Positions 3,856-25,307 of a stretch of DNA of 64,000 bases are shown here, piece after piece (the stretch's first letter is position 1; every line of letters begins with the position of its first letter). Under the pieces are notes generated by a model that saw only the letters and a program-made list of their open reading frames with translations, did not search any database and was not told where the DNA came from. The translations under genes and the position numbers were made by a program. The stretch is from contig NC_135498.1 of the NCBI RefSeq assembly GCF_052857255.1, positions 161,228,624-161,292,623 of the forward strand, written 5' to 3'. The DNA comes from Amblyomma americanum. Taxonomy: Eukaryota; Arthropoda; Arachnida; Ixodida; Ixodidae.

Positions 3856-4682
3856 CATGGACGACAGAAGAAAGACAAACACAAGCGCTGACACTACCAA
3901 CTGAAAACGATTTTATTTGCACGTGAAATAAATACCGTCGGAAGAAGGAGTAATGAAAACACCACGTGATCAAGGAGGATGTAAAACTAAAAGGGAAACC
4001 AAAAAAGTCGGGACATGTACAAATCTGGGAATGGAAACACAAGATTTGAGATATGACAGTTCCTTCTTGAGGAGGGCGATCAATGGTCTGCTGTCGCAAG
4101 TCTCGCCCTTTTCGTCGATGATGAATGCCTCGAAGATTTCTCTCGCTGCTTTCTCTTTATAGCTGCGTAAAACGCGCGTTTCGTGCAGCTTTGGTCTGCA
4201 GCTCTAGCAGTGTAATGGCAAATTGCTACTTGTTCCAGTCCTCATTGAATTTGTGTGTTCACGCCGCCGATCAACCGATGTACGTGCTGCCACAGCTTAG
4301 CGGAATTTCTTAAACGACTGCATTCTTGCAGTCAACGAAGCGGGGTTCATGCGTTTCGACTCATGACGTCTTTTCCTTTCGTTTTGGTTTACTTTTCTGC
4401 AAAGGCCGCCCAGCTTGTTTGGTGCTGAAAAAAAAAAAACTTGGATGCCAGCGCAGTTTCCAGCCTTCTTTAGCCGATGTGATACGGAATGTACCTATGT
4501 AACTGCGACAATATTCTTTTTATAATACTGTGAACGGTCGTCCTTCATTTTTCCTTTCCGGAATTCTGCCAGGAGCACTTCTGCTAGATTCCTAAGCAAG
4601 GTCATGGAAAAACCTCCCGATTCCATCCTCTTGATTTGGGATGCAAAACTGGCGCCAACTTGATGTGGGCAAGATCTTCTTT
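3856..4682 (-). mobile_element. Penelope-like element fragment, C-terminal half (outer layer of the nest)
   Basis: Minus-strand frames contain RSCPHQV and SFASQIKRMESGG near 4625-4682, the conserved linker after the RT domain. EIPLSCGSTYIG, the start of the GIY-YIG nuclease, lies near 4270-4310. The characteristic PLE 3' end (ACAAGCGCTGAC followed by TTTATT) lies at about 3875-3915. The N-ward continuation of the same kind of protein, the RT core on the same strand, is at 24841-25307. The two may be halves of one element separated by the nested insertions, but about 70 codons between them are missing. Several stops are present. Confidence 0.72.
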
Positions 4683-5081
4683 GTACCCACAGATACAGAC
4701 GCGGTACAGTCAATATTTTTCAGTCTAAAAAATTCTCGCGCCTGTGATGCAAACGGTCTACAGATCAGACCTGTTAAATGCGTCGTGGATAAATTAGGCG
4801 CAGTGCTTGCTCTTGTTTATAATCTGTGCATAGTGTCAGAAATACTTGCGTTTTAAATTCCAGTAGCACGTGTCATATCTGTTTATAAAAAAGGTGCCAG
4901 GCACCAAGTAAATAACTATAGACCCATATCAATCCTCCCTGTATTCTCTAAAGGCCTTAAAAATAAGTACATAACCGATTGCACTCTTTTTGCAATAAAC
5001 ACGGTACTATAACGAAACCACAGTGCGGTTTTCGAAAGAACCGGTCTACAGAACTAGCGCTGTAGGACCAAAAAGAGTATA
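4683..5081 (+). mobile_element. CR1-like LINE fragment, N-terminal RT part
   Basis: Plus-strand translation shows FVPTDTDAVQSIFFSLKNS, then ARVISVYKKGARHQVNNYRPISILPVF, the typical start of a CR1/Jockey-like reverse transcriptase. It ends in STELAL-DQKEY exactly where the fragment at 24203 picks up with the same residues (KEY-LHNFEIKHF). The 5' end is truncated against PLE sequence and frames are broken. Confidence 0.75.
5070..5081. repeat. Left target-site duplication of the RTE insertion
   Basis: AAAAAGAGTATA here matches AAAAGGAGTATA at 24191-24202 with one mismatch. Both lie exactly where CR1-like sequence meets RTE sequence. Confidence 0.7.
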
Positions 5082-6040
5082 ATCATCATCAGCATCATCA
5101 TCAGCAGCAGCTTGACTACACCCACTGCAGGGCAAAGGCTTCTCCCATGTTTCTACAATTAACCCTGTCTTTTGCAAGCGGCGCCCACCCTATGCCTGCA
5201 AACTTCCGCATCTCATCCGCCCACCTAACCTTCTGCCGCCCCCTGCTACGCTTGCCTTGTCTTGGAATCCACTCCATTACCCTTAAGGACCAGCGGCTAT
5301 CTTGCCTTTGCAGTACATTCCCTGCCCAAGCCCATTTCTTCCTCATGATTTCGACTAGGGTGTCATTAACACGCGTTTGTTCTTTCACCCACTCTGCCCG
5401 CTTCCGCTCTCTTAACGTTGTAGATATCATTTTCCTTTTCATGGCTCGCTGCGTTGTCCTTAAGCGGAACCCTTTTCGTTAGCCTCCACGTTTCTGCTCC
5501 GTAGGTACCAGTAAGATACAGCTGTTGTACATGTTTCTCTTGAGAGATACTGGCAACCTGCTATTCATGATTTGAGAGAACCTGCCATATGCGCTGCACC
5601 CCATTTTTATCCTTCTAATTAATTCGTTCTCATGATCCGGATCCGGTGTCACTACCTGCCCTAAGTATTCTTTACCAGTTCGAGCACCTCGTTGCCAATT
5701 GTGAACTGCTGTTCCCTTGCTAGACTCTTGAACATTACTTTGGTTTTCTGCATTTTAATATTTAGACCTACCATACTACTTTGTCTAACTCATTTATCAG
5801 GATATGCAGTTTATCTCCTGAATAACTTAGCCAAACATTGTTGTCAGCGAATCGCAGATTATTTAGGTGTTTTCCATTAACTCTTATCTCCAACTCTTCT
5901 CAATTCAGGCCTCGGAATATCTCCTGTACACAGGCGGTGAATAGCATTGGCGAGATCGTGTCTCCTTGCTTGACAACCTTCCTTATTAGAATTCTATTGC
6001 TGACTTTATGGAGGACAATGGTAGCCCTACAGTTCCTATA
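5082..6040 (-). mobile_element. RTE-clade LINE, 3' part (5'-truncated copy, interrupted)
   Basis: On the minus strand the frames give QGDTISPMLF (RT motif) near 5965, then NGKHLNNLRFADN, then RTE C-terminal sequence at 5116-5442 (RKKWAWAGNVLQ, GKRSRGRQKVRWADE). The 3' terminus at 5082-5110 is a degenerate (TGATGA)n tail, as expected for RTE. The frame is disrupted by stops and indels. The sequence stops at 6040 in a (TA)n tract and resumes at 23988 with the preceding RT residues. Confidence 0.85.
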
Positions 6041-6077
6041 TATATATATATATATATATATATATATATATATATAT
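6041..6077. repeat. (TA)n microsatellite
   Basis: Nearly perfect alternating TA tract at the point where RTE sequence gives way to PLE end sequence. Confidence 0.95.
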
Positions 6078-6181
6078 AAAAAGACTTCTTGGCACGGTCA
6101 GTAGTAGTGAATAAACAGACCAATGTTTGAAACAATGTAATTTGACGTTTCGGCCGTGGAACGGCCTTCATCAGAAGGCCG
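6078..6181 (-). mobile_element. PLE terminal region separated from its body by a LINE
   Basis: The minus strand carries a PLE-type terminal sequence with a CTGATGA - 6-bp hairpin - GAAAC block. The parent PLE is probably the minus-strand copy whose 3' untranslated region resumes at 10522, since the CR1/L2-like LINE at 6182-10521 sits between them. It borders a (TA)n tract, like other PLE borders in this window. Confidence 0.5.
6144..6175 (-). ncRNA. Hammerhead-ribozyme-like core in PLE terminus
   Basis: On the minus strand CTGATGA (6168-6174) is followed by a perfect 6-bp hairpin GGCCGT-TCC-ACGGCC and then GAAAC-GTC (6144-6151). This is the order of the conserved core of a type-I hammerhead ribozyme. 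PLEs are known to carry minimal hammerheads. I cannot see a strong stem III or a clear closing stem I, so this copy may be decayed or may work only as a dimer. Confidence 0.5.
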
Positions 6182-23898: not shown

Positions 23899-23987
23899 AT
23901 ATATATATATATATATATATATATATATATATATATATATATATATATATATATATATATATATATATATATATATATATATATATA
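23899..23987. repeat. (TA)n microsatellite
   Basis: About 88 bp of alternating TA at the right-hand break of the RTE element. It mirrors the tract at 6041-6077. Confidence 0.97.
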
Positions 23988-24190
23988 TTGTGACATAAGG
24001 CTCATCTACACCTGATTCCGCAATCCCTGTATGACTGCTCAGGTTTCCACTGAGTCGAATGCTTTCTCATAATCAATGAAGGCTATATATAGGGGTTGGT
24101 TATATTTTGCGCATTCCTTTATTATCTGATTGATAGTATGAATAAGATCTATTGTGGAATATCCTTTACGAAAGTCTGCCTGACCATTTC
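23988..24190 (-). mobile_element. RTE-clade LINE, 5' part of the split copy
   Basis: The minus strand reads NGQADFRKGYSTIDLIHTIN, then LYIAFIDYEKAFDSVE and GLRNQV. This is the RT segment that directly precedes the residues encoded at the right edge of 5082-6040. Compared with the plus-strand RTE at 33919-34110, only about 12 bp are missing between the two pieces. Its 5' truncation point is next to the target duplication at 24191. Confidence 0.85.
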
Positions 24191-24202
24191 AAAAGGAGTA
24201 TA
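24191..24202. repeat. Right target-site duplication of the RTE insertion
   Basis: AAAAGGAGTATA, paired with 5070-5081. Confidence 0.7.
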
Positions 24203-24840
24203 CTTTGCACAATTTTGAGATAAAACATTTTGTCGTGGGCATATTTGTAGACTTCACTCGGGCATTTGACTGTATTTGTCATAATATCCTTTTCCAAAAT
24301 TTAGAGCACTATGGCATCCGTGGTCTTCCGCTGACATTATTAAAAAGCTATCTCTCACATAGGTATCAGTTTGTTTCCGTTCATTACTTGGTGTCAAGAA
24401 AAAAAAACAAATAATATCCGGTGGCCCACATGGTAGAACTTTGGGTCCGTTGCTCTTCATCCTATATATAAATGATTTGGTTAATATCTCGACAGAAGCT
24501 AAATTTATTCTGTATGCTGACGATAGCAGTCTATATACAACGCCTTCTACTGTCACAAGGCTATTCTAAAGGCAAACTATGTCTTACGAGCGTTATGTTT
24601 GTGGACGGCAAATTACCACCTGGAATTAAATGCTACGAAAACAAAACCAACCATTTTTCAACCCAGGGGTAAGCACGCTGCAAAAATTGAGTATACGATG
24701 TCTAGATCTTCTAAGATTGAAATTATGCAGTGCGTTAAGGTTCTTGGTGTACATTTTTAGAATCATTTAAAATGGGATGACCATGTATATTTTGCGCTGA
24801 AGAAACTGATCGGTGTGCTAGGAATGCTAAATCGAAACCG
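24203..24840 (+). mobile_element. CR1-like LINE fragment, central RT part
   Basis: Continues the reading of 4683-5081: LHNFEIKHFVVGIFVDFTRAFDC, LEHYGIRGLPLTLLKSYLSHRYQFVSV, GGPHGRTLGPLLFILYIND and ILYADDSSLY (catalytic YADD near 24512), then GVLGMLNRNR before it breaks off into PLE sequence. Stops and frameshifts are present and the 3' end of the element is missing. Confidence 0.8.
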
Positions 24841-25307
24841 TCCTCAACTGGTTTTCTGTGGGAAGTTCCCTCGTCAAGGTCAAGCCAGAGATAGTCGTTT
24901 CAAGACAGTTTGTGATGAGGCTCACATGGACAGTGGTATGGTCCCCTGGCTGACAGTCAAACAGGATGAGATAATTGTCAACATGCCTGAATATACGGGT
25001 GGTCCTGAAAGTGCTAAGCTGCCTTTCTACGTTTCTGTTGTGGTAAGCCAAAACGAGGTCGCTGAGCGCGGGGGCTAAGCAGGAACCAATGCACACTCCT
25101 TTCTTTCGGGTGTAAATGTCGCTTTCAAAGGCGACAAAGGGCGACCAAGGGCGACCGCAGGTAACATTACAGTAGTCCAGGAAGGTTTCCATGTTAGTGC
25201 CACACGCATTCTGGAAACGAACGACGTCGTACTCGTCGATGACTACATTTAGAATGTCGCCATGTGGCAGGGAACAGTAAAAGTCCTTTACATCTACTGA
25301 GAAATCA
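24841..25307 (-). mobile_element. Penelope-like element fragment, RT core
   Basis: Minus-strand frame with SVDVKDFYCSLPHGDIL (RT motif A) at about 25260-25305, GVCIGSCLAPALSDLVLA (motif B) near 25070-25120 and HVDNYLILFD near 24970, where the usual Y-x-DD has decayed to HVDN. It ends in LTRELPTENQLR at the junction with CR1 sequence. It is N-ward of the PLE piece at 3856-4682. Confidence 0.82.

What the first reader, a model, noticed from the sequence alone, without database searches (positions are those of the whole stretch)
3856..25307. Multi-layer nest of retroelements spanning 21 kb
Matching halves flank an 18-kb core in nested order: PLE (3856-4682 and 24841-25307), CR1-like (4683-5081 and 24203-24840), RTE (5082-6040 and 23988-24190), then the core. 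The CR1-like halves join without loss in KEY-LHNFEIKHF and the RTE halves nearly so (about 12 bp lost). The core itself holds a CR1/L2-like LINE and an I-clade LINE inside PLE copies. The order of at least four insertion events can be read directly. The outermost layer is weaker, because about 70 PLE codons and the CR1 3' end are missing.
Basis: partly seen in the sequence, partly recalled or inferred. Interest (0 to 1): 0.75.

Follow-up and report, generated by a model that had tools for sequence, protein, structure and literature searches.

The report
Six-deep nest of jumping genes
A 21-kb stretch of a large genome is a stack of jumping genes inserted inside one another, whose order can be read from uninterrupted copies elsewhere; it is ordinary biology, unusually well resolved, and its middle layers sit beside long TA-repeat tracts.

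Summary
The nest is real and deeper than described. Other copies in the same genome show the interrupted sites of five elements (outer PLE, CR1, RTE, PLE-A, PLE-B) without the insert: RTE copies cross 6036/23991 with 21-27 bp between; 21 of 29 CR1-like loci cross 5081/24191 through the 12 bases that form the RTE target-site duplication; 4 of 4 outer-PLE copies hold both halves in one element, 143-147 bp of which are missing here. The core is composite: two PLEs, a LINE 99% identical to 39 other copies inside PLE-A, a terminal-inverted-repeat element with an I-clade-like LINE inside PLE-B, and a solo-LTR-like repeat. That makes nine elements and six levels. Divergence falls inward, from about 21-23% (CR1) to 0-2% (the two inner LINEs). 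All four (TA)10+ tracts of the 64-kb window lie at PLE-A or PLE-B 3' ends or beside the LTR-like repeat set there; 22 of 28 other PLE-A copies also meet such a tract. At three sites known without the insert the TA run is short, but pre-existing tracts are not excluded. Nested elements and AT-rich PLE targeting are known. The order of PLE-A and PLE-B, and the host species, remain open.

The parts
3829..4682 (-). outer PLE, left piece (3' part)
   Evidence: 76-80% to 4 of 4 fetched copies
4683..5081 (+). CR1-like LINE, left piece
   Evidence: 21 of 29 other loci match, contiguous with the right piece
5070..5081 (.). RTE target-site duplication, left copy
   Evidence: 12 bp, one mismatch to 24191-24202
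5082..6036 (-). RTE LINE, 3' part
   Evidence: 29 other loci scored and fetched; 28 also match the other half
6037..6078 (.). (TA)21 at the PLE-A 3' end, in place of the short native TA run of the RTE
6079..6180 (-). PLE-A 3' end
   Evidence: continuous with 10516 onward in 28 of 28 fetched copies
6181..10515 (+). CR1/L2-like LINE with 303-bp tandem 5' units; young
   Evidence: APE endonuclease and RT domains; 39 other scored matches to its 3' 1.7 kb, all 99%
10516..13739 (-). PLE-A, rest; cut short at 13739
   Evidence: 39 other matches at 91-95%; 20 of 20 fetched copies run on past 13739
13744..13850 (.). (AT)53 between PLE-A and the left 3' end of PLE-B
13851..15580 (-). PLE-B, inverted 3' arm; also shows the uninterrupted form of 17207/22302
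15581..17207 (+). PLE-B coding part (RT, C-terminal part)
   Evidence: RVT_1; 39 other matches at 93-97%
17208..22301 (.). element with terminal inverted repeats and ATT duplication; superfamily unknown
   Evidence: 16 of 17 terminal bases match; site uninterrupted in the left arm and in L173
17552..21669 (-). I-clade-like LINE inside the TIR element; 5' end not found
   Evidence: endonuclease, RT, RNase H; 40 other matches to the 3' end at 98-100%
22302..23507 (+). PLE-B, direct 3' arm
   Evidence: 85-91% to the inverted arm
23508..23527 (.). (TA)10 at the right 3' end of PLE-B
23528..23896 (+). solo-LTR-like repeat lying in the TA tract
   Evidence: 39 other scored matches at 94-96%; of 6 copies read, 6 begin TG and 5 end CA
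23897..23988 (.). (AT)46, rest of the TA tract
23989..24190 (-). RTE LINE, 5' piece (5' truncated)
24191..24202 (.). RTE target-site duplication, right copy
24203..24838 (+). CR1-like LINE, right piece; about 790 bp of 3' end missing
24841..25358 (-). outer PLE, right piece
   Evidence: matches at 72-86%; the best-scoring other copy is 81% over about 510 bp

Best explanation
The stretch grew by eight successive insertions into an old Penelope-like element (PLE). A CR1-like LINE entered the PLE; later the CR1 3' end and about 145 bp of PLE were lost, probably in one deletion (inferred). An RTE LINE entered the CR1 and left a 12-bp duplication. PLE-A and PLE-B then entered the RTE at its native short TA run, in an order not resolved, and long TA tracts now stand at their 3' ends. 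A TIR element entered PLE-B and received an I-clade-like LINE; a CR1/L2-like LINE entered PLE-A; an LTR element entered the right TA tract and was reduced to a solo LTR. Shown: uninterrupted forms of the sites in the outer PLE, CR1, RTE, PLE-A and PLE-B exist elsewhere. Inferred: that each insertion used the usual mechanism of its class, that the I-clade-like LINE entered the TIR element after it landed, and that TA tracts served as landing places.
For: RTE junction; CR1 junction and duplication; outer PLE; PLE-A junction in 28 of 28 fetched copies; PLE-B junction in the window's own left arm and in L173. Divergence agrees with nesting: CR1 21-23%, RTE 5-9%, PLE-A 2.6% and PLE-B 2.5% from fragment majorities, LTR-like 4-6%, LINEs 0-2% from other copies.
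Against: The majorities come from copies most like the window, so values are relative only. RTE halves differ (8.6 and 5.0%). 8 of 29 CR1 loci and 1 of 29 RTE loci show no match to the other half, as truncated copies would. PLE-A and PLE-B are equally diverged, so their order is open. The I-clade-like LINE has no duplication and no mapped 5' end. TA tracts flank the core, where assemblies are weakest; no reads were seen.
Confidence: 0.87

Rival explanations
1. Assembly artefact: unrelated stretches carrying halves of common repeats were joined within the TA tracts.
For: Three junctions of the core lie in TA tracts, which are hard to assemble.
Against: The RTE is flanked by a 12-bp duplication and the CR1 continues across it 19 kb away; the outer PLE continues too; no N in the window.
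Confidence: 0.05
2. Target choice: PLE-A and PLE-B simply land in TA tracts that were already long, and add nothing to them.
For: One of 28 PLE-A copies meets (GT)65 and at least three have (AC)n or (CA)n close to the TA tract, as if simple repeats were the target. AT-rich targets are reported for Penelope elements (PMC3846280 and PMC11167929, passages).
Against: Three targets seen without the insert have short runs: RTE site, 1-6 units in 18 junctions matched by a pattern against 21 and, across the LTR-like repeat, 46 here; a 475-bp tandem repeat, ACATATTAAAG or a close variant in 10 of 10 native stretches, against 19 in L088; a LINE, no run of 4 or more in 6 native copies, against 78 in L069, though there the alignment stops about 10 bp short of the tract.
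Confidence: 0.4
3. The tracts grew by ordinary replication slippage after insertion, with no part played by the PLE enzyme.
For: Lengths vary widely, 5 to 94 units among 25 PLE-A copies with a tract; TA repeats are known to be unstable (recalled).
Against: The outer PLE family has no such tract in the 4 copies printed or in the window, and the native RTE sites with up to 6 units did not grow.
Confidence: 0.35

Closest known systems
Nested transposable elements of large genomes, with microsatellites as landing pads (PMC12477314, passages)
   Same: Successive insertions into older elements; simple repeats beside the insertions.
   Different: Here each of five interrupted sites is backed by uninterrupted copies; no new kind of process is needed.
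Endonuclease-bearing Penelope elements (PMC3846280 and PMC11167929, passages; PMC8969392, passages)
   Same: 5' truncation, inverted terminal arms, an optional 3' tail giving two termini, AT-rich targets.
   Different: Long (TA)n tracts at the 3' end of one family, 22 of 28 copies; not mentioned in the passages I read.
Athena elements / terminons of rotifers (described in PMC12477314, passages)
   Same: Reverse transcriptase related to telomerase; repeats next to the 3' end, near a hammerhead motif.
   Different: Those carry telomeric repeats and lack the endonuclease; here TA repeats inside a chromosome, and the hammerhead-like motif is by eye only.
2A-bearing non-LTR retrotransposons (PMC4981915, passages)
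   Same: The LINE at 6181-10515 encodes DVEVNPGP, fitting D[V/I]ExNPGP, early in ORF1.
   Different: Activity untested; 303-bp frame-keeping tandem units lie upstream.

Membership tests
Nested transposable-element insertion | interrupted element exists uninterrupted elsewhere, with the halves in the same order and strand | tested here: met
   RTE, CR1, outer PLE, PLE-A, PLE-B
Nested transposable-element insertion | target-site duplication at the inserted element | tested here: inconclusive
   met for the RTE (12 bp) and the TIR element (ATT); none found for the I-clade-like LINE; none seen for the CR1/L2-like LINE against the empty site; not readable for the PLEs in TA tracts
Penelope-like element (PLE-A, PLE-B) | reverse transcriptase of the telomerase-related PLE type | tested here: inconclusive
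   RVT_1 at or just above the cut-off in both, 29.6 and 35.3 bits, cut-off 29.6; no tree made
Penelope-like element (PLE-A, PLE-B) | C-terminal GIY-YIG endonuclease | tested here: inconclusive
   PLE-A: GIY-YIG at 18.6 bits, below the 22.6 cut-off, E 0.0023; PLE-B piece: no GIY-YIG match
Penelope-like element (PLE-A, PLE-B) | inverted or tandem terminal repeats and optional 3' tail | tested here: met
   inverted arms in PLE-B; 13 long and 8 short termini among 25 PLE-A copies with a tract
Penelope-like element (PLE-A, PLE-B) | hammerhead ribozyme motif | tested here: inconclusive
   CTGATGA...GAAAC-like letters by eye (motif recalled); stem II folds; no Rfam hammerhead match up to E 1
RTE, CR1 and I clades of LINEs | place of the reverse transcriptase in a tree of clades | not tested
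LTR retrotransposon (23528-23896) | TG...CA ends and a pair of LTRs round a coding part | tested here: inconclusive
   of 6 copies read, 6 begin TG, 5 end CA; two share a right flank and two a left flank, as inner parts would; window copy lacks the first T; coding part not sought

The most novel reading that the evidence does not exclude
These PLEs make or lengthen (TA)n tracts at their 3' ends while copying themselves, much as the related telomerase adds repeats, and the new tracts attract the next PLE or LTR insertion, so that nests seed themselves.
Probability: 0.2. Interest if true: 0.65.

Novelty: new member of a known kind. Interest (0 to 1): 0.38.

Why it matters
It is a checkable record of eight ordered insertions, and it shows a strong link between one PLE family (with hints for a second) and long TA tracts. 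If filled and empty sites across the genome show that the tracts arise on insertion, that would bear on how the telomerase-related enzymes of PLEs start synthesis and on one source of new microsatellites.

Tried and rejected
That the core is one insert was rejected: it holds six elements. That 23528-23896 is PLE was set aside after its copies showed LTR-like ends. That PLE-A ends naturally at 13739 was rejected: 20 of 20 fetched copies run on. The 5' end of the I-clade-like LINE was sought in 5 copies without success, and no duplication was found. Rfam gave two matches up to E 1, both a microRNA model lying on the TA tract and below its cut-off. A PDB sequence search with the PLE-A RT gave five weak matches, none to a reverse transcriptase. 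Two fetched stretches meant to reach a PLE-B 3' end (L174, L175) did not reach a recognisable end, so the TA link of PLE-B rests on the window, L103 and L105.

Papers: ten searches were answered. Those bearing on TA or simple repeats at PLE ends are 35, 36, 38, 42, 48 and 64. The 2021 paper by Craig and others on PLE clades is not held, so I cannot say that such tracts are unreported. Of PMC3160391 (nested elements in Rhipicephalus) and PMC12910113 (Drosophila virilis) I saw passages that did not bear on this nest.

Full report
Check of the observation. The window lies at C2:161228624-161292623 of an unnamed 2.56-Gb genome. Each half of a layer was searched on its own, and other copies were then examined for the other half. 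Of 29 other RTE loci, 28 also match the right half, some in part. In the 18 junctions printed, 21-27 bp lie between the halves; here that stretch is replaced by (TA)21, the core and (AT)46, with about 12 bp lost. Of 29 other CR1-like loci, 21 match the left piece and all 21 run on into the right piece through the same 12 bases, within one base; 8 have no left match. So 5070-5081 and 24191-24202 are the duplication made by the RTE. For the outer PLE, 4 of 4 fetched copies hold both pieces with 143-147 bp between that are absent here. Of 13 other CR1 3' flanks compared with L042, 8 share 770-800 bp beyond 24838 that the window lacks. One deletion would explain both losses (inference).

The core. 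(TA)21 at 6037-6078 is followed by the 3' end of PLE-A, which in 28 of 28 fetched copies continues straight into the sequence at 10516. Between the two lies a CR1/L2-like LINE with endonuclease and RT domains; its last 1.7 kb is 99% identical to all 39 other scored matches. PLE-A is cut at 13739; 20 of 20 fetched copies run on. Then come (AT)53 and PLE-B, whose 3' region occurs twice, inverted on the left and direct on the right, 85-91% alike over the long matches. PLE-B is split at 17207/22302 by an element with 16 of 17 matching terminal bases and an ATT duplication; the left arm itself and L173 show the site uninterrupted. Inside lies a LINE with endonuclease, RT and RNase H; 40 other matches at 98-100% begin at about 17537-17554. 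Its 5' end was not found. The repeat 23528-23896 has 39 other scored matches at 94-96%; of 6 copies read, 6 begin TG and 5 end CA, which suggests a solo LTR set in the TA tract.

Order and age. Nesting gives outer PLE, CR1, RTE, the two inner PLEs, then the TIR element, LTR-like repeat and two LINEs. Divergence agrees: outer PLE 72-86% identity to copies, CR1 21-23% and RTE 5-9% from fragment majorities, PLE-A 2.6% and PLE-B 2.5%, LTR-like 4-6% from copies, LINEs 0-2%. The majorities come from the copies most like the window, so the figures are relative. PLE-A and PLE-B cannot be ordered.

TA tracts. Of 28 other PLE-A copies whose 3' flank was fetched (28 of the 39 listed), 25 have a run of five or more TA units and 22 a run of ten or more at or within about a dozen bases of the 3' end; one has (GT)65 and two have no tract. 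In 58 RTE and CR1 loci, 217,661 bases, there are 2 tracts of ten or more, and 0.07% of positions lie within 10 bp of one. The outer PLE family has none in the 4 copies printed or in the window, so this is no rule for all PLEs here. Two PLE-A termini recur, 13 long and 8 short, with 4 others, which resembles the optional tail reported for Penelope elements (passages). Three sites known without the insert have short runs, which leans towards growth with or after insertion; the (GT)65 and (AC)n-flanked copies lean towards target choice. One native copy of the 475-bp repeat, L140, carries a (TA)37 at another place. Slippage after insertion is not excluded.

Mechanism. Most likely each element inserted in the way usual for its class, the two inner PLEs at AT-rich sites, and the TA tracts beside them then offered a site for the LTR element and perhaps for whichever PLE came second. 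That the tracts draw in further insertions rests on this nest and on L103 and L105, where PLE-B-like ends and PLE-A share a TA tract.

Relation to known work. Nested elements, landing pads in simple repeats and AT-rich target choice by PLEs are all known (passages). The finding is a well-resolved example of a known kind.

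Noticed in passing
6182-6585: The young LINE starts with tandem 303-bp units (101-bp parts 100% identical at 6182 and 6485) that keep one frame open; another copy, at C4:17178018-17181148, has 11 units.
   Followed up: partly
6115-7326: ORF1 of that LINE carries DVEVNPGP, a 2A-like motif, shortly before a methionine.
   Followed up: partly
11132: The window's PLE-A lacks about 79 bp that most other listed copies have at this point (gap between paired matches).
   Followed up: no
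L137-L146: A common tandem repeat of about 475 bp is a recurrent PLE-A target; ARAGORN finds a tRNA-Ser in 1 of 4 stretches tested.
   Followed up: partly
L103 and L105: PLE-B-like 3' ends and PLE-A 3' ends meet tail to tail through one (TA)43 or (TA)23 tract.
   Followed up: no
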